Part shown: positions 3,521-64,000 of the stretch, in pieces
Numbering within the stretch: position 1 is the stretch's first letter
Layout of the letters: each line of letters opens with the position of its first letter
NCBI GenBank assembly: GCA_903899015.1
Contig: CAIUHP010000028.1
Coordinates: 1-64,000, forward strand
Length of the DNA: 64,000 nucleotides
Origin: an uncultured Armatimonadota bacterium
GTDB taxonomy: Bacteria; Armatimonadota; Fimbriimonadia; Fimbriimonadales; Fimbriimonadaceae
Direction: 5' to 3'
Translations under genes and position numbers: made by a program
Notes under the pieces: generated by a model
The model's input: the letters and a program-made list of their open reading frames with translations, nothing else
Told to the model about the DNA's origin: nothing
Databases searched by the model: none

Positions 3521-4833
3521 TAGAACCCAGCCTCATCGGCAAGTACTTTGTCGACCTTCACTTTGGCTCGCGATAGAACGACTTTCGCGTCTCGCTCACG
3601 GCCCGCAATTAAGTTGTCAATTTCGGAATTAAATGCGGTGGTCCATTCGCTCCAACGGTCGTTGATAGGTAACGGTCGGCTGTGTTCGACCGCGTCGACA
3701 AAGACCCAGTTATTGAATGGCGGCAAAGTAGATTTCAGGTAATCCGGCGAATAAGCCATTGCCTTACGGGTCGGAAAGCATCTTCGAAGCTTCACATACA
3801 GCTCATTCTCGGTGGTTTCGCTGGTGATAAACCGCTCAAATTTCCATGCTTCGGCGGGATGCTTCGTCTCGGCATACATCACCAACTGATTGCCTTTACA
3901 GAGGGTGGTATTCCCAAACGGACCCTTCGGAACCGGGCAAACATCCCACTCAAATTTATGGATGACCTTTCGAAATCGAGGGGACATTCCCATGAAATCA
4001 AATACCATGCCGAGCTTGCCACTCTCGAAGGTGAAAAGCGAGTTTTCGCCCTGGGCTTGAGTGGGACTACAGTGATCCTTCCACCGAAAATCGGCGATCA
4101 TTTGAAAGGCTTTCACCGCGCCCGGCTGATCAAAAACGGCATGCTTAAAGTCTTTATCGAGCATGTCTCCTCCGTATCCCCAGATGGCGCTGGCTAGGAC
4201 CGGGAAAGTCGCGCTGCTAGAAGGAGCTCCAAAGCCAAATTGTACCGGACGTCCATCGGGGCCCTTTTTGGTCATCTTGATCGCGCATTCCCGAAACTTG
4301 TCCCAAGTCCATTCGCCTCGCTTCGCCATTTCTGCCGGGTCCTTCAGTCCGGCTGCTTTGAACATGGTTTTGTTGTAGTAAATGAGGTCCCCGCCAAACA
4401 AAACGTTAAGCCCGTAAAGCTTGCCTTGATAAAGGCACTCCTCGATCGCTTGCGGAAAGAAATCATCACGGCTAAATGTCTTATCCTTTGCCGCTAGTTC
4501 GGTGAGATCGTAGAAATAGCCTTTCTTGACGAGGCTAGGGAAGTTGTAATGGTCGACGCGCATCACATCGGGGGCGGTGTGAGAGGCCAACATGAGCATC
4601 ATCTTTAACCCGTACTCGGCGGCCGGAACTTTAAAGAACGTCACGTGAATGTTCGGATTCTTGGCGTTGAATTCGTCGCACAGATGCTCTTCGAGAGCCA
4701 TTTGCTCTGGGTTTCCCCACGCCATGTATCGAATCGGGATCTTGCCGGCATTCGGGTCCGTCGCACACCCCACCCCAACAAAAACGGTCGTCAACGCTAA
4801 CCATGGGCAAATATTGCGTAAACCGTTTGACAT
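3520..4833 (-). CDS. Sugar ABC transporter substrate-binding lipoprotein
   Basis: Extracytoplasmic solute-binding protein of the family 1 (MalE/UgpB-like) type, 437 residues from ATG 4833. A lipoprotein signal is clear: positively charged start, hydrophobic stretch, and lipobox VGVGC with Cys at residue 23. The mature part has IRYMAWGNPEQ, a DEFNAKNPNIHVTF strand, MRVDHYNFPSLVKKGYFYDLTE and YYNKTMFKAAGL, all usual for these binding proteins. A GTG eight codons upstream (4857) is an alternative start. First gene of the importer operon with the two permeases. The bound sugar is unknown. Confidence 0.92.
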   Translation of the reverse strand: MSNGLRNICPWLALTTVFVGVGCATDPNAGKIPIRYMAWGNPEQMALEEHLCDEFNAKNPNIHVTFFKVPAAEYGLKMMLMLASHTAPDVMRVDHYNFPSLVKKGYFYDLTELAAKDKTFSRDDFFPQAIEECLYQGKLYGLNVLFGGDLIYYNKTMFKAAGLKDPAEMAKRGEWTWDKFRECAIKMTKKGPDGRPVQFGFGAPSSSATFPVLASAIWGYGGDMLDKDFKHAVFDQPGAVKAFQMIADFRWKDHCSPTQAQGENSLFTFESGKLGMVFDFMGMSPRFRKVIHKFEWDVCPVPKGPFGNTTLCKGNQLVMYAETKHPAEAWKFERFITSETTENELYVKLRRCFPTRKAMAYSPDYLKSTLPPFNNWVFVDAVEHSRPLPINDRWSEWTTAFNSEIDNLIAGRERDAKVVLSRAKVKVDKVLADEAGF

Positions 4834-5177
4834 CGTAATGAACAAAAACCTTAGCACCCCATTCTAAAGCAAAGCTTTAACCACCGGGGCAGAATTCGTT
4901 TAAGTCGTGGAGTTTTGGGTACGGGATACGGAACTAATATCGATGGCCTCTTTCTTCAGAATTCCAACGAACCCTGTAGCCGCAGGCGGTTCTTGCCTGC
5001 ACGTACCCATTTGTAGGTGGCTCCAATTTGGAATTCAGAACACATCGGCAACCGTCTACCGGATTTCCTACGTCTCAAATTTCCAACGGAGGCACGGACC
5101 ACCTCCGCCTACTGGGGCTCTGGCGGTCGGGCACAGGAGTCCATCGATATGGCTCCGTATTCCGTGCTCAAACACGC
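4834..5177. other. Intergenic stretch with small inverted repeats
   Basis: About 340 bases between the HAD hydrolase end and the sugar-binding protein start hold no supportable gene; the short open frames are not protein-like. Two small hairpins are visible: GCAGGC ggttctt GCCTGC near 4983-5001 and GGAGG...CCTCC near 5089-5107. The importer promoter should lie at the high-coordinate side of its start but no convincing -35/-10 pair stood out. No tRNA-like cloverleaf was found. Confidence 0.4.
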
Positions 5178-5948
5178 TCACAAACCGAGCAGAGGAAGCA
5201 ATTCCATGAGGGAGTGAATCGTTGCGTCTGGCTCAGGGGCGCCTTCGGGAAGACCTTCGGGAACGAGAGTTTCGCCGTTTGCACTGGGAGGTACATCTGA
5301 GTCTCGTCGAATCCAGACCGCATGCCAGCCAAACTCAAGGGCCGCTCGTATATCGTGGCCGTAGCTGTTGCCAACCATTAAAATCTCGTTAGGCATGCAT
5401 TGGACGGCTGCAGCGGCTCGGTCGAAGACCAGTTTCATCGGTTTGCCCAAGCCCATTTCGCCTTCGATAAAGATGTTTTGGAAATAACCTGCGATTCCCA
5501 GGGTCGCTACTTCTTGTCTTTGAACGTCGGCAGGGCCATTGGTAATCAAACCGAGCGGAAACTTGTCCTTGAGAATGTCTAAGACTTGAATGGCATCCGG
5601 GAACAGCGTGAGGGCTCGATCGCGCTCTTCCATATAGGCCTGGCTGAGAAGGGATGCAAGATCGGTGTCTTCGATGCCGAGTCGCTTCAGAGTCAAGCGC
5701 ATCTGTTCGGTGCGAGTCGGCTCACCGGTTTTGAGATAGGTCTCATACCATCCGGTGTGCTTCAAGGTCGGAGCAAACTCTCGAAAAGAAGCGGCCCAGT
5801 GACGGATCATGTCGTCGCTGGAATAGCCTTCCGGTCCGTGCTTCTCGAACGTGGCCCTTAGGCCATATTTGGAAGCATCCCAGTAACCACATAGCGTGTC
5901 ATCGAGATCGAAATAAATCGCACGGACGGTTCCCAGATCAACTACCAA
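5178..5948 (-). CDS. HAD superfamily hydrolase (subfamily IA, YjjG/phosphoglycolate phosphatase-like)
   Basis: Predicted cytosolic phosphatase of 256 residues. Motif I is IYFDLDDTL with nucleophile Asp14 and acid/base Asp16; a helical cap follows (residues about 25-115); motif II is LITNGP, motif III Lys lies in GLGKP, motif IV is VGNSYGHDI. The substrate is unclear; YjjG-type nucleotide phosphatases and small sugar-phosphate phosphatases look alike. Start is TTG at 5948, overlapping the trpS stop by seven bases, and no better in-frame start exists before motif I. It closes the lysA-M50-trpS operon. Confidence 0.87.
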   Translation of the reverse strand: MVVDLGTVRAIYFDLDDTLCGYWDASKYGLRATFEKHGPEGYSSDDMIRHWAASFREFAPTLKHTGWYETYLKTGEPTRTEQMRLTLKRLGIEDTDLASLLSQAYMEERDRALTLFPDAIQVLDILKDKFPLGLITNGPADVQRQEVATLGIAGYFQNIFIEGEMGLGKPMKLVFDRAAAAVQCMPNEILMVGNSYGHDIRAALEFGWHAVWIRRDSDVPPSANGETLVPEGLPEGAPEPDATIHSLMELLPLLGL

Positions 5949-58633: not shown

Positions 58634-59392
58634 ATGCAGTCTCCATGGATCGCGACTGTTGACTCTCGGGAACTTTCGACTTTACTTGGTCTCGGCATCG
58701 AACCAGTCAGGCAAGTTTTTGGTGCTTCGGTGCGTGCAATCTCACTCACTTCCTTCCCGATTACGACGTGTCTGGTTCAGATCGAGATGGATGCCTACTA
58801 CCAAATGTTGGACGAATGCCTTCAGGCCGTTCATGCAGAAGCGGAGCGGCTTTCGGCAAACGGCGTAGTTGATTGCCAGCTCACTTATGAAACGACTTTA
58901 GAAGGAGCACCGGCCGGATATCGATTGCTGCGAATGCAGATGATCGGCACTGGGGTCCTTGATGAAAGGAATCTCTCAAGCCAACGTTATGTTGCGGCAT
59001 GCACGGCAACCGAGCTCCTGGGCTTGCATCGAGCAGGATTTCAACCATGCGGACTCGCGGTCGGCCACTGTTCTTTTTACCAAGTCGCGTGGCGCCAAAA
59101 GCCAAAACGGGGTCCGTTGGGGTCGTGGATGAACGAAGAAGTAGCTGAACTTACTCAGGGGCCGTATACGGCTCGTGAAATTGCGATGTCGAGGATGACG
59201 GACATGGCTCAAAAATGCGGTGGCGTTGGGATCGTCGCCGTGAAATACCAATCTTCGGTCATTCCTTCGGGATCGTTAGTCGATGGAACCATGGCCGCCG
59301 TCTGTCGAATGTCGATGATCGGAACGGCAATTCGTCGCAACCCGAAATCTGACTCGGAAGTATCCATATCGTTGGCCGTTAAGGTCAACTAG
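58634..59392 (+). CDS. YbjQ/UPF0145-like protein with two heavy-metal-binding-type domains
   Basis: 252 residues, two related segments. The first (about 15-120: IEPVRQVFGASVRAISL, CLQAVHAEAERLSANGVVDCQLTYE) and the second (about 125-235: LGLHRAGFQPCGLAVGHCSFYQVAWRQ, TAREIAMSRMTDMAQKCGGVGIVAVKYQ, MIGTAIRRNPK) both follow the UPF0145 pattern of a G-S/H...Y strand, a helix with RxLAxxRM-like and a closing GTA strand. Paralogue of the next gene. Function unknown; a metal role rests only on the family name. Confidence 0.75.
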   Translation: MQSPWIATVDSRELSTLLGLGIEPVRQVFGASVRAISLTSFPITTCLVQIEMDAYYQMLDECLQAVHAEAERLSANGVVDCQLTYETTLEGAPAGYRLLRMQMIGTGVLDERNLSSQRYVAACTATELLGLHRAGFQPCGLAVGHCSFYQVAWRQKPKRGPLGSWMNEEVAELTQGPYTAREIAMSRMTDMAQKCGGVGIVAVKYQSSVIPSGSLVDGTMAAVCRMSMIGTAIRRNPKSDSEVSISLAVKVN

Positions 59393-59402
59393 GAATAAAG
59401 AA

Positions 59403-60224
59403 ATGCCCTACGTACAAGGTTCGTTTGAAGGTCTTCCCGACGCTGCAAGGCGTCGCTTAACAGAAATGCGCGGCGGAGAAGGAAAGAAAGGGCTCTTTAC
59501 CAGCGACCTTTCGGTAAATGAGTTCCTGCTTTGCCAGGAAGCTTCCTTTGATCCGGTTGGCTTGGTAATGGGATCGTCCATCTATCACATTGGATTCCAG
59601 GCCCAGAAGTTCTATCAAAATCAAGAGCTTGAAGTGTTGACTCAGGCAATGTATGAGGCCAGGGAGTTGGCTATGACGCGTATGGAGGAGGAGGCAGACG
59701 TCCTTGGTGCAGATGGCATAGTCGGTGTTCGGCTCGAAGTTACTCGCTACGAATGGGGTGCCTCAATGGCGGAATTTATGGCCGTCGGTACCGCGATTAA
59801 GCATCGTGGAGGCGGAAACTATCGGACATTGGACAACCGTCCGTTCACATCGGACCTTAGCGGTCAAGACTTTTGGACACTTCTCAAAGCAGGTTATCAG
59901 CCTCTGTCACTTGTCATGGGAACCTGTGTCTATCACGTAGCGCATCAAGGGGTGATGCAGGCGATGAAGCAAGTTGGTCGGAACATTGAAATGCCTAACT
60001 ACACGCAGGCACTTTACGACGCACGCGAGTTGGCACTTTCCCGAATGCAAGCGGAAGCCGAAAGGGAGGGCGCTGCCGGGATTGTCGGTGCCCAAGTGCG
60101 CGAAAACAGCCACGGCTGGGACAGCCATGTGATCGAATACTTTGCTGTTGGAACGGCAGTCAAGCCAATTCCAGGAACCAACCCGGTCCCTGAACCTACA
60201 TTGACTCTGTCGTTGAACGACTAA
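59403..60224 (+). CDS. YbjQ/UPF0145-like protein with two tandem domains
   Basis: 273 residues. Two clear internal repeats: residues about 30-135 (FTSDLSVNEFLLCQEASFDPVGLVMGSSIYHIG, YEARELAMTRMEEEADVLGADGIVGVRLEV, FMAVGTAIK) and about 147-255 (FTSDLSGQDFWTLLKAGYQPLSLVMGTCVYHV, YDARELALSRMQAEAEREGAAGIVGAQV, YFAVGTAVK). This is the UPF0145/heavy-metal-binding type, usually a homopentamer of single domains. Last gene of its operon, followed by a hairpin at 60229. Confidence 0.8.
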   Translation: MPYVQGSFEGLPDAARRRLTEMRGGEGKKGLFTSDLSVNEFLLCQEASFDPVGLVMGSSIYHIGFQAQKFYQNQELEVLTQAMYEARELAMTRMEEEADVLGADGIVGVRLEVTRYEWGASMAEFMAVGTAIKHRGGGNYRTLDNRPFTSDLSGQDFWTLLKAGYQPLSLVMGTCVYHVAHQGVMQAMKQVGRNIEMPNYTQALYDARELALSRMQAEAEREGAAGIVGAQVRENSHGWDSHVIEYFAVGTAVKPIPGTNPVPEPTLTLSLND

Positions 60225-60228
60225 GTTA

Positions 60229-60246
60229 GCCTGCCAACTGGCAGGC
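60229..60246. terminator. Short GC-rich hairpin between convergent genes
   Basis: GCCTGCC pairs exactly with GGCAGGC across AACT. No T-run on either side. It lies in the 26-base gap between the YbjQ-like operon end and the secreted protein end. Confidence 0.5.
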
Positions 60247-60250
60247 GGTG

Positions 60251-60685
60251 CTACCGGAAGAAGTTGACAGTGGTTGTAATGCCCGAGCTGGTTTTGGTAA
60301 CGGACAGAGTTCTCTGGGCCTTGTTAATCACATAGACTTGAGGAAATCCAAATTCTTTACCGTTCTCCATTCGCTGAAGGGAAACCGTTGTGCCGTTTGT
60401 GCTCCAAACTCCTCGAACGAGGGGAGTCATTTTAGGTGCTCCAGCGGTTGCCAGGCTATAGGTCTTGTTGTCCTTAAGAGTCAGGGTCAGTGTATCGGCC
60501 TGAATTTGATTGAGGGCCTTTAACCGAGCAGTATTCTGGTGAGGATTCTTGAGCTTAGGCAAGCTCGACATATCAAACTGAATTTTTCCGTGCCATGTAC
60601 CGGTCACGCTGTCGGTTGCAAAGGATGCTCCGGCTAGGATGACCATACCAAAAACAACGCTGCCAGCCTTCATCAAGTAGTTCAC
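60251..60685 (-). CDS. Small secreted protein, paralogue A
   Basis: 144 residues from GTG 60685, which aligns with the ATG of paralogue B (MNYLMKAGSVV against MNQFIKVSVLV); an internal ATG at 60673 is the alternative. Signal peptide AGSVVFGMVILAGASFA, then a beta-rich domain beginning TGTWHGKIQFD, with LTLTLKDNKTYSLATAG, RGVWSTNGTTVSLQ, ending TVNFFR. The strand order recalls lipocalin-like domains, but this is a guess. The 5' leader forms a hairpin around the ribosome site and start (see 60660-60718). Confidence 0.78.
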   Translation of the reverse strand: MNYLMKAGSVVFGMVILAGASFATDSVTGTWHGKIQFDMSSLPKLKNPHQNTARLKALNQIQADTLTLTLKDNKTYSLATAGAPKMTPLVRGVWSTNGTTVSLQRMENGKEFGFPQVYVINKAQRTLSVTKTSSGITTTVNFFR

Positions 60686-60718
60686 CCTACAGGTATACCC
60701 CTCGACGAAGGCTGGCAG
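60660..60718 (-). promoter_or_regulatory. Leader hairpin enclosing the Shine-Dalgarno and start of paralogue A
   Basis: CTGCCAGCCTTC and GAAGGCTGGCAG (60660-60671 and 60707-60718) are a perfect 12-base inverted repeat with a 35-base loop. In mRNA order: 5' arm, three bases, GAGGGGTATA, start GTG, eleven bases, 3' arm in the coding region. The same layout recurs at 61146-61207 with different but still complementary arms, which suggests a conserved RNA structure. Confidence 0.6.
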
Positions 60719-60741
60719 TCTCCAGAACGGCTTAGAATTTC

Positions 60742-61173
60742 TTAGCGAGTGAAGGTAACTCGAACTGCATCCTTCTGGTGGGTTCGAGGATCTTCTTGGC
60801 TCATCACAAATGCTTTGCCATTTGGCGAGAGGACAAATACGTCTGGCTTGCCTTGGATTTTTCCGTTAACAGTTGTGGACATGGTCAGGGTTTTCCCGGT
60901 GAGTGTCCATGAGCCTGTTCGGCTTGGGCCACCGATCGTCGACTCTGTAAACGTGTGGTCAGGCTTAATGGTGAGGTTGATGACGGTTTGCTGTACCTTA
61001 GAAATCATTCCCATCATTTTTGTATGAGCCGACGCATTTGGAGCCTTTGAGATCTTGGCGGTGTCGATTCTGACTCGTCCTTTCCAATTACCCGTGATGT
61101 CGCCTGCCATTGCAGAAGCTGCGAAAGCGGAGAGCGCACAAACGAGAACGCTAACCTTTATAAATTGGTTCAT
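60742..61173 (-). CDS. Small secreted protein, paralogue B
   Basis: 143 residues. Signal peptide VSVLVCALSAFAASAMA, then ITGNWKGRVRIDTAKISKAP, INLTIKPDHTFTESTIG, GSWTLTGKTLTMSTTVNG, and a closing DAVRVTFTR, colinear with paralogue A. No cysteines in the mature part and no known family. The ATG is set by alignment with A and by GAGGGG eleven bases upstream. The two genes are 56 bases apart and may share a transcript with the LolA-like/cytochrome gene upstream. Confidence 0.8.
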   Translation of the reverse strand: MNQFIKVSVLVCALSAFAASAMAGDITGNWKGRVRIDTAKISKAPNASAHTKMMGMISKVQQTVINLTIKPDHTFTESTIGGPSRTGSWTLTGKTLTMSTTVNGKIQGKPDVFVLSPNGKAFVMSQEDPRTHQKDAVRVTFTR

Positions 61174-61207
61174 GAGTTTTTATACCCCTCACCAAAGGTT
61201 AGCGTTC
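61146..61207 (-). promoter_or_regulatory. Leader hairpin enclosing the Shine-Dalgarno and start of paralogue B
   Basis: GAACGCTAACCTTT (61146-61159) and AAAGGTTAGCGTTC (61194-61207) form a perfect 14-base inverted repeat with a 34-base loop. Distances match those of paralogue A: three bases from the 5' arm to GAGGGGTATA, and eleven bases from the start codon to the 3' arm. Stem sequences differ from A but keep pairing. Confidence 0.6.
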
Positions 61208-61238
61208 CGTCAACTTGAAGTTTTAATGGTATTACGAC

Positions 61239-62177
61239 CTATTTTTCTTTAGCACCCGCTTTAATCCAGCTAGCAATTGTTGCTAGGTCAGCATCTGAGA
61301 GGGAACCGCGAGGAGGCATGAGTGGTTTGCCTGCGCCCTTGAGGAACGCGGTCAACCGGCTACCATCGGGATCACCAGCCGTGATTTCTGAACCACCCCG
61401 GCCACCAGCCATAGCGCCTGCATAGGACGACAAATCGAGGCCCGATCGAGGATTGTTAGAATTGTGGCAACCAGCACAATTGGTCTGGAAGATGGGAGCG
61501 ACTTTATCCCAAGCGACGGTAGCCACCGCACTTGGATCGACTTTCTTCGCGCCTTCAGGAACTGAAAAGTTGAAATCAGCATCTGCGGGAGCGTCATTCG
61601 ATAGTGTCAGCTCTTTAGCCATCATGATGAGCTGTTTGTCTTCACCAGTCTTAAGCGAAATTCCGCGAGCCACACCCAATGTGTTGTCAATGAACAACGT
61701 TGCGGTTCTCTCTGGCTTACCTGGGAGGACGAGTGCGACCTCGGTGACTGCCTTCCCCTTGATGATGCGAGCGGAACCGACTTTAATCCCGGTTACATCC
61801 TTGAATGGCTCTTTTGTGAAGAAGGCAACCCAAGGTAGGACAGCATCCTTCTTGAGGAAGGTCTTCAGGTCAGCTTCCGTTTGAGCAGTTTGGGTGTAAG
61901 AGTTGTCAGCCTTCTTGAAATCCCAAACGGTTGTTCCATTTGCAACGAGTGTTTGGTCAGGAGTTTCGAGCTTGAACTTGCCCTCTTTACCTAGCTTGAG
62001 TTTGTATTCCACTGGTCCGCCGCCAGGGAGGTTCTGGACGGTGTACTGAACATCGATGGATTTCGCTGTCTGAAGTTGCTTTGTATGCTTTTCGAGCAGC
62101 GAGTCACCCGACCCGGTTTGAGTGGTAATGACGGCACCAAGAATGCCTGTTAATCCGATAAGGAAAGGAATTTTCAT
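61239..62177 (-). CDS. LolA-like domain fused to cytochrome c (CxxCH) domain
   Basis: 312 residues from ATG 62177. Signal peptide IPFLIGLTGILGAVITTQT. Residues about 25-205 resemble LolA/outer-membrane lipoprotein-sorting proteins (SIDVQYTVQNLPGG, KFKLETPDQTLVANGTTVWDFKKADNSYTQT, LFIDNTLGVARGISLKT, NFSVPEGAKKVD). Residues about 222-312 are a monohaem cytochrome c of the planctomycete type: CAGCH at 234-238 binds haem, Met287 in PLMPPRGSLS is the likely sixth ligand, and SDADLATIASWIKAGA closes it. The combination of a sorting-like beta domain and a haem domain is unusual. Role unknown. Confidence 0.82.
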   Translation of the reverse strand: MKIPFLIGLTGILGAVITTQTGSGDSLLEKHTKQLQTAKSIDVQYTVQNLPGGGPVEYKLKLGKEGKFKLETPDQTLVANGTTVWDFKKADNSYTQTAQTEADLKTFLKKDAVLPWVAFFTKEPFKDVTGIKVGSARIIKGKAVTEVALVLPGKPERTATLFIDNTLGVARGISLKTGEDKQLIMMAKELTLSNDAPADADFNFSVPEGAKKVDPSAVATVAWDKVAPIFQTNCAGCHNSNNPRSGLDLSSYAGAMAGGRGGSEITAGDPDGSRLTAFLKGAGKPLMPPRGSLSDADLATIASWIKAGAKEK

Positions 62178-62275
62178 AATTCGACCCGGAAAGCGCTGGA
62201 GGCGCAAAGAATATGATGCGGGACAACCCTGTTTCGTTTCCTAAGAATTCGTTAATCTTAGGTCCCGTAAACAGA

Positions 62276-62305
62276 AGAGTGGAAAGCCGGAAGACCTTCC
62301 ACTCT
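62276..62305. terminator. Terminator hairpin downstream of ppdK
   Basis: AGAGTGGAA pairs perfectly with TTCCACTCT across a 12-base loop, followed by TTCTT on the plus strand and TCTGTTT on the minus strand. It lies just downstream of the ppdK stop and before the LolA-like gene. Confidence 0.75.
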
Positions 62306-62336
62306 TTCTTATGTTACCAAGACAATGGCCGTTGCT

Positions 62337-64000
62337 TTACTTGTCGTTGGTGACTTTAACGTTCTTTTGAATCGCAGCCTGAGCAGCCGCGAGTCGAGCG
62401 ATAGGCACTCGGAACGGTGAGCAGCTAACGTAGTCCAATCCGATTTCTTGGCAGAAGAAGATCGATTCGGGGTCGCCGCCATGCTCGCCGCAGATTCCAC
62501 ACTTCATGCCTGGGCGTGAAGCTCGTCCTTCGTCAACCGCCATTCGCATCAAGCGACCAACGCCAACCGTGTCGAGAGTCTCAAATGGGTTGCGAGTCAG
62601 AATCTTCTGATCCACATACTTGCCCAAGAACTTGCTCTCAGCGTCGTCTCGGCTGAAGCCGAACGATGTTTGAGTAAGGTCGTTGGTTCCGAAGGAGAAG
62701 AACTGAGCGTACTGAGCAATTTCTCCCGCGGTGAGAGCGGCACGAGGAATTTCGATCATCGTTCCGAATGAGTAAGGAATTTCCACGCCTTGCTCAGCAA
62801 CGATCTTCTTTGCTTCCGCTTCAAGCTGATTTTGAACCACTCGAAGCTCGTTGACCGTGCTTACGAGGGGAATCATAATCTCAGGATAGACCTGCTTGCC
62901 TTCCTTGATCAGCTTTGCGGCTGCCTGAAGGATGGCGCGAGTTTGCATAACGACCAAGCCTGGGAAGACGATCGAGAGTCGAACGCCTCGAAGACCGAGC
63001 ATTGGGTTCGATTCCTTCATGCTTTCAACTTCGTGAAGCATCTTCATCTTCTCAGCCAACTGCTCATCAAGACCGGTCTGACCGAGGTCAATCTTAGTCT
63101 TAAGCTCAGTTGTTTCTCGAACCAACTGCTCGAAGTTCGGTAGGAACTCGTGGAGAGGAGGATCGATGAGTCGAACGGTGACCGGGAGGCCTTGCATGAC
63201 TTCGAAAATGCCTTCGAAGTCGTTCTGCTGGACGACCTGGAGCTTGTCCAGAGCGGCTTGTCGTACGGCTTCATCCTTCGTCAAGATCATTTCTTGAACG
63301 ATTGGAAGTCGATCGGACTCGAAGAACATATGCTCGGTTCGGCAAAGTCCGATACCTTCAGCACCGAATTCAAGTGCTTGAGCGGCGTCACGAGGATTAT
63401 CGGCATTGGTTCGAACCTTCATGGTTCGAGCCGCATCTGCCCAAGCCATCAGTTCGCCAAAGGAACCGCTAACTTCGGGAGCAATCAGTTTGAGCGCGCC
63501 AAGATAAACGTTTCCAGTTGAACCGTCCATCGTGATGACATCGCCTTCATTTACGACGGTACCGTCGACGGAGAACTTTCGGTTGTGAGTATCGACTGCA
63601 AGAGCCTCTGCACCCGCAACACACGGAATTCCGAATCCGCGAGCAACAACGGCTGCGTGGGAAGTCTTTCCACCGCGAGCGGTGAGAACTCCCTGGGCTG
63701 CCATCATGCCATGGACGTCGTCTGGGTTGGTTTCATCTCGAACCAAAATGACTTCGTGGTTGAGACCACCATGCTTGCCACGCTCGGCTGCGCGGTCCGC
63801 ATCAAATACGACCTCACCAACGGCAGCTCCTGGCGAAGCAGCAAGTCCCTTGGCGAGCAATTTGGCGCCGTGAAGGGATTCAGGATCGATTCGTGGGTGA
63901 AGGAGCTGATCGAGGTGTGATCCGGTCACTCGCGAAAGCGCTTCTTCTTTCGTAATGAGACCTTCGTGAACCATGTCGACTGCAATCTTGACGGCAGCTG
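62337..64000 (-). CDS. ppdK: Pyruvate, phosphate dikinase, C-terminal part (gene runs off the window)
   Basis: Interconverts pyruvate, ATP and Pi with PEP, AMP and PPi. Only the last ~554 residues are visible; the frame stays open to base 64000 (AAVKIAVDMVHEGLITKEEAL), so the ATG inside is not the start. The phosphohistidine domain is present (LTARGGKTSHAAVVARGFGIPCVAGAEAL), then the PEP/pyruvate barrel: EGIGLCRTEHMFFESDRLP, MLGLRGVRLSIV, EIMIPLVSTVNEL, GTMIEIPRAALTAGEIAQYAQFFSFGTNDLTQTSFGFSRDDA, and MKCGICGEHGGDPESI with the catalytic Cys. Confidence 0.97.
   Translation of the reverse strand, partial: AAVKIAVDMVHEGLITKEEALSRVTGSHLDQLLHPRIDPESLHGAKLLAKGLAASPGAAVGEVVFDADRAAERGKHGGLNHEVILVRDETNPDDVHGMMAAQGVLTARGGKTSHAAVVARGFGIPCVAGAEALAVDTHNRKFSVDGTVVNEGDVITMDGSTGNVYLGALKLIAPEVSGSFGELMAWADAARTMKVRTNADNPRDAAQALEFGAEGIGLCRTEHMFFESDRLPIVQEMILTKDEAVRQAALDKLQVVQQNDFEGIFEVMQGLPVTVRLIDPPLHEFLPNFEQLVRETTELKTKIDLGQTGLDEQLAEKMKMLHEVESMKESNPMLGLRGVRLSIVFPGLVVMQTRAILQAAAKLIKEGKQVYPEIMIPLVSTVNELRVVQNQLEAEAKKIVAEQGVEIPYSFGTMIEIPRAALTAGEIAQYAQFFSFGTNDLTQTSFGFSRDDAESKFLGKYVDQKILTRNPFETLDTVGVGRLMRMAVDEGRASRPGMKCGICGEHGGDPESIFFCQEIGLDYVSCSPFRVPIARLAAAQAAIQKNVKVTNDK

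What the first reader, a model, noticed from the sequence alone, without database searches (positions are those of the whole stretch)
60660..61207. Two paralogous secreted-protein genes share a leader hairpin with compensatory stem changes
Both genes have a long perfect inverted repeat (12 and 14 bases) that encloses the Shine-Dalgarno and start codon in the loop. Spacing is identical in both: three bases from the 5' arm to GAGGGGTATA, and eleven bases from the start codon to the 3' arm within the signal-peptide codons. The stem sequences differ (AGCC/GGCT in A, AACC/GGTT in B; GCCA/TGGC against GCTA/TAGC) but pairing is preserved. Substitutions in one arm that are matched in the other are what selection for RNA structure would leave. 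I infer a translational switch or autoregulatory leader for secreted proteins.
Basis: partly seen in the sequence, partly recalled or inferred. Interest (0 to 1): 0.75.

Follow-up and report, generated by a model that had tools for sequence, protein, structure and literature searches.

The report
Covarying hairpin around gene start sites
Two neighbouring secreted-protein genes in a Fimbriimonas-like bacterium carry a stem-loop that brackets their start codon, and related genes in another species keep the pairing although most paired bases have changed; what looked like a ribosome-binding site in the loop is more likely the promoter's -10 box, so the hairpin probably acts only in RNA running through from the gene upstream.

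Summary
In detail: perfect 12-bp (A) and 14-bp (B) inverted repeats enclose the starts of two tandem minus-strand genes, with the stated spacings, far beyond chance (5 of 40 homologues have arms of 11 bp or more; 1 of 1,560 swapped pairings does). Orthologues in G013 (a Fimbriimonas MAG) keep the hairpin in the same register with other sequences (A with L042, B with L007): 12 of 17 pairs changed on both sides; sliding one arm leaves 1-3. So pairing, not sequence, is conserved. But a covariance model finds no further leader in 20 genus genomes, and more distant homologues lack it.

'Shine-Dalgarno in the loop' is not supported: the conserved part is GGTATA, with TATA about 12 nt before the start, also in homologues without the repeat. 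That is the signature of a -10 box of (near-)leaderless genes, so the 5' arm should lie upstream of the native transcript. Best explanation: the hairpin forms only in read-through RNA from the co-directional, terminator-less gene upstream and insulates this start, while the promoter inside the loop makes mRNA that escapes it. The mechanism is inferred; a normal mRNA leader and template-switch maintenance remain live rivals.

The parts
61194..61207 (-). B leader, 5' arm GAACGCTAACCTTT
   Evidence: begins 31 nt behind the upstream stop codon
61181..61190 (-).
   Evidence: GGTATA at the same distance from the start in 15 of 46 homologues
61146..61159 (-). B 3' arm AAAGGTTAGCGTTC, inside signal-peptide codons
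60742..61173 (-). gene B, secreted protein of 143 aa (ATG at 61173)
60707..60718 (-). A leader, 5' arm CTGCCAGCCTTC (stem extends inward to 18 bp with two G-U pairs)
   Evidence: begins 23 nt behind B's stop codon
60694..60703 (-). A loop motif GAGGGGTATA: probable -10 box
60660..60671 (-). A 3' arm GAAGGCTGGCAG, inside signal-peptide codons
60251..60685 (-). gene A, secreted protein of 144 aa (GTG at 60685)
61239..62207 (-). upstream same-strand gene with a cytochrome c (PSCyt1) end, 65 nt before B, no terminator found between

Best explanation
A stem-loop selected for pairing brackets the promoter -10 box and the start codon of tandem secreted-protein genes. It can form only in RNA transcribed from further upstream (read-through from the cytochrome-type gene into B, and from B into A), because the gene's own promoter sits in the loop and its (near-)leaderless mRNA begins downstream of the 5' arm. 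In read-through RNA the hairpin stands 23-31 nt behind the upstream stop codon and closes the SD-less start region, so that ribosomes finishing the upstream gene do not re-initiate there; the protein is made only from the gene's own mRNA. Shown here: the hairpin, its covariation, the -10-like box in the loop, the tandem context without a detected terminator. Inferred: the transcription start, the read-through, and the insulating effect.
For: Covariation in orthologues, 12 of 17 pairs. GGTATA/TATAAT-like box at -17..-11 in the family, SD-like sequence rare; same signal before first genes of transcription units, which Zheng et al. read as leaderless (PMC3160421). In L012 an intrinsic terminator with T8 directly abuts GGGTATACC, leaving almost no room for a leader. 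All six strong cases follow a same-strand gene by 51-65 nt without a terminator, while L012 and L031 have a terminator there and no hairpin. Without the 5' arm the 3' arm is computed 39-48% unpaired, with it 6-15%.
Against: No transcript data. L009 in the same context has no hairpin. The start codon is in the loop rather than in the stem, so closure of the start is partial except in A. The context comparison is small, phylogenetically not independent, and rests on crude upstream ORF calls.
Confidence: 0.42

Rival explanations
1. One reading: the hairpin belongs to the gene's main mRNA leader, with GAGGGG as Shine-Dalgarno and the start codon in the loop, and works as a translational switch or a stability element.
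For: Covariation on the sense strand and G-U pairs in A. GAGGGG is purine-rich and 11 nt before the start in B.
Against: GAGG is not kept in homologues, GGTATA is; only 23 nt separate B's stop codon from A's 5' arm, leaving no room there for another promoter; no sigma-70-type promoter found in the region.
Confidence: 0.23
2. Template-switch (quasipalindrome) homogenisation: DNA replication repeatedly copies one arm from the other, so the repeat stays perfect without selection for function.
For: Mechanism is documented and produces multi-base compensatory changes (PMC8794818). Arms are perfect Watson-Crick over 11-14 bp; the coding arm carries amino-acid changes and the non-coding arm follows.
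Against: Comparable repeats are almost absent at other gene starts; register and spacing to the GGTATA box are kept without gaps across deep divergence; A has two G-U pairs in the stem that homogenisation would have removed.
Confidence: 0.17
3. The hairpin serves the upstream gene: a processing or 3'-end-protecting structure in its transcript, with no role at the downstream start.
For: 5' arm lies 22-37 nt behind the upstream stop codon in all five cases measured.
Against: Such a role would not need the second arm to lie in the next gene's codons on the far side of its promoter and start codon; no T-run follows the stem.
Confidence: 0.12
4. DNA-level element: a dyad operator or an invertible promoter segment.
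For: The repeat is centred near the predicted transcription start.
Against: Arm sequences differ between A, B, L007 and L042 while pairing persists; a protein or recombinase site would keep sequence. 34-41 bp between arms is very short for inversion.
Confidence: 0.03

Closest known systems
Ribosome termination structure, RTS (Chemla et al. 2020, PMC7518266)
   Same: Stable mRNA structure behind a stop codon, proposed to insulate the next gene from re-initiation
   Different: RTS is centred about 5 nt behind the stop; here the stem begins 22-37 nt behind it, is long-range, covaries base by base, and encloses the next gene's promoter box and start codon
IS10/IS50 transposase fold-back protection against outside transcription (own knowledge, not re-read here)
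   Same: A structure present only in read-through RNA, absent from mRNA of the native promoter, keeps the start from being used
   Different: No mobile element; no Shine-Dalgarno to hide; arms are not terminal inverted repeats
TA-led leaderless genes (Zheng et al. 2011, PMC3160421)
   Same: TATAAT-like box about 12 bp before the start codon
   Different: Those carry no hairpin around the box
Template-switch-maintained hairpins (Monttinen and Loytynoja 2022, PMC8794818)
   Same: Perfect arms with multi-base compensatory change
   Different: Described there for RNA genes; here one arm is protein-coding and the other lies in presumed promoter DNA

Membership tests
Ribosome termination structure | Stable structure directly behind the upstream stop codon | tested here: inconclusive
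   5' arm begins 22-37 nt behind the stop; RTS minimum is centred at +5
Ribosome termination structure | Controls re-initiation of the downstream gene | not testable with these tools
   needs reporter assays
Leaderless (TA-led) gene | TATAAT-like box about 12 bp before the start, no Shine-Dalgarno | tested here: met
   for the family, for the genome; GAGGGG in A and B is the only SD-like feature and is not conserved
Leaderless (TA-led) gene | Transcript starts at or next to the start codon | not testable with these tools
   no 5'-end data
IS10/IS50-type fold-back protection | Native promoter lies inside the repeat so its mRNA lacks the 5' arm | tested here: inconclusive
   -10-like box lies in the loop; the start of transcription is unmapped
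IS10/IS50-type fold-back protection | Part of a transposable element | tested here: not met
   tandem secreted-protein genes in a locus kept between species
Known Rfam leader or riboswitch | Match to a covariance model | tested here: not met
   no match up to E = 1 in 59000-62500

The most novel reading that the evidence does not exclude
A chromosomal 'promoter-in-the-loop' hairpin: selection keeps promoter DNA complementary to the same gene's signal-peptide codons so that a leaderless gene in a tandem array is expressed only from its own promoter and stays silent in read-through RNA.
Probability: 0.33. Interest if true: 0.65.

Novelty: new variant of a known kind. Interest (0 to 1): 0.45.

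Why it matters
Leaderless genes that lie directly behind other genes face the problem of unwanted translation from read-through RNA. A covarying hairpin that includes the promoter would be a simple, testable answer, and a case where coding and promoter sequence must evolve together. If template switching is the cause instead, the locus is a clean natural example of arm homogenisation between coding and non-coding DNA.

Tried and rejected
Rfam scan: nothing. ECF-type promoter GGAAC-N16/18-GGTATA: no enrichment, 25 hits against 82 for the reversed pattern in 20 genomes. GAGGGGTATA as a genome-wide motif: 7 copies in 4.9 Mb, about what chance gives, and only B, A and one other stand before an obvious start. 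Sense against antisense fold energy as a test for RNA: not discriminating, IR-less homologues show the same bias. First genome-contig scan with B and the alignment-based one gave nothing. My protein query was typed partly from a guess (after residue 25) instead of the real G013 protein; the loci it fetched are real DNA and were judged on their own sequence, but its E-values should not be used. Invertible promoter and protein operator were rejected because arm sequences are not shared.

Full report
WHAT IS THERE. The window is part of a 4.94-Mb draft genome (G000, contig C28). Its HrcA protein is 80-81% identical to those of an uncultured Armatimonadetes MAG and a Fimbriimonas sp. MAG, whose contigs match G005:C10 and G013:C121 in length, so the organism is a Fimbriimonas-like member of the Armatimonadota. 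On the minus strand lie a gene with a cytochrome c (PSCyt1) end (61239-62207), gene B (60742-61173) and gene A (60251-60685), followed by a convergent YbjQ-type gene. A and B encode small proteins with signal peptides, 29% identical, weakly lipocalin-like at best. The two inverted repeats are exactly as described.

MORE THAN CHANCE. Pairing the upstream part of each of 40 homologues with its own coding start gives perfect arms of 14, 12, 11, 11, 11 and 10 bp in six cases; 1,560 swapped pairings give 11 bp or more once. A scan of 762 kb (mostly this genome) with 686 crudely called genes finds five start-enclosing inverted repeats of 11 bp or more, four of them in this family. Folding of -45..+45 gives z of -7.1 (A), -4.6 (L015), -4.5 (L042), -4.4 (B), -3.7 (L008) and -3.0 (L007), and values near zero or positive in most other homologues.

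COVARIATION. G013 has the same locus with three tandem copies behind the cytochrome-type gene. A protein tree pairs A with G013 copy 3 (L042; support 100/99) and B with copy 2 (L007; 94/64). A plain MAFFT alignment of the four leaders puts all arms in one register, without gaps between the 5' arm and the GGTATA box. With the stem written out, 85% of cells pair, 12 of 17 pairs have changes on both sides, none of 500 shuffles reaches this, and sliding by 1-3 columns drops it to 1-3 pairs. Four sequences are few, but the changes are many and the orthologues are only 45-46% identical in protein. What is conserved is pairing, not sequence.

HOW FAR IT REACHES. A covariance model built from the four leaders finds those four (also weakly on their opposite strands) in 20 genomes of the genus and otherwise only a very weak match at G013 copy 1 (17 bits, E 0.9). 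L008 in G005 has a 10-bp version with a longer loop and shifted 3' arm; L015 in another genus (G035) has an isolated 11-bp one. Homologues in G004, G012, G017, G018, G008 and other genera lack it. So the stated refutation, orthologues lacking the repeat, is true for more distant members and false for the closest one.

THE LOOP LOOKS LIKE A PROMOTER BOX. Over 46 homologues the GAGG part is not kept; GGTATA occurs at -17..-13 in 15 and nowhere at -60..-25, TATAAT-like hexamers occur 21 times at -17..-11 against a background of 0.03 per position, and SD-like hexamers are rare. In 215 divergently transcribed first genes the same signal is about 3-4 times background just before the start, whereas genes less than 30 nt behind another show SD enrichment instead (crude gene calls). 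Zheng et al. take TA-like signals about 12 bp before the start in bacteria as promoters of leaderless genes (PMC3160421). In L012 an intrinsic terminator with T8 ends right at GGGTATACC, leaving almost no leader. If this holds for A and B, the 5' arm lies upstream of the native transcript start.

MECHANISM (INFERRED). Both arms are then present only in RNA that comes from upstream. All six strong cases follow a same-strand gene by 51-65 nt with no terminator found, while L012 and L031 have a terminator there and no hairpin (for L042 the automatic call picked a wrong ORF, the true neighbour L007 ends 62 nt before it). L009 in the same context has no hairpin, so it is not indispensable. The 5' arm starts 22-37 nt behind the upstream stop. 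I therefore favour insulation: in read-through RNA the hairpin keeps terminating ribosomes from re-initiating at an SD-less start, while the native near-leaderless mRNA escapes. Ribosomes sliding from one cistron to the next (70S scanning) are an accepted initiation mode (review PMC9031893), and structures behind stop codons were shown to govern re-initiation in a synthetic operon (PMC7518266). Without the 5' arm the 3' arm is computed to be 39-48% unpaired instead of 6-15%.

RIVALS. A leader in the main mRNA remains possible until 5' ends are mapped. Template switching can keep arms alike without selection (PMC8794818); the near absence of similar repeats at other starts and the two G-U pairs in A speak against it but do not exclude it. 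Operator and inversion models fit badly because arm sequences are not shared.

VERDICT. Observation confirmed; the inference that pairing is conserved is strengthened; the Shine-Dalgarno and autoregulation readings are not supported. A small, real, covarying element of unproven function, found so far at one locus type in two species.

Noticed in passing
L032 (G018:C64), -58..-22 before the start: Another hairpin, TACCCAGAATC/GATTCTGGGTA with a 15-nt loop, lies between a same-strand gene and this homologue; its 3' arm overlaps the GGGTATACC box. A different geometry in the same context.
   Followed up: partly
L015 / L131 (G035:C2), around the GTG start: Isolated 11-bp start-enclosing repeat GAGGGCCGTCC/GGACGGCCCTC in a homologue of another genus; its nearest relatives lack it.
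   Followed up: partly
L089 (G007:C61), minus-strand position about 1387: A 13-bp repeat ATTCTATGCGATT/AATCGCATAGAAT encloses a possible TTG start of an unrelated gene; the true start may be elsewhere.
   Followed up: no
762 kb, mostly G000 with short stretches of relatives: TATAAT-like boxes just before the start codon are enriched in first genes of transcription units, SD in genes behind others: leaderless genes seem common in this Fimbriimonas-like group.
   Followed up: partly
window 58634-60224 (+): Two adjacent genes with YbjQ-type domains (PF01906, two stretches each), convergent to gene A.
   Followed up: no
L082 (G013:C121) 4288-5688: Three tandem copies of the secreted-protein gene where G000 has two; copy 1 has at most a weak, bulged hairpin.
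   Followed up: yes
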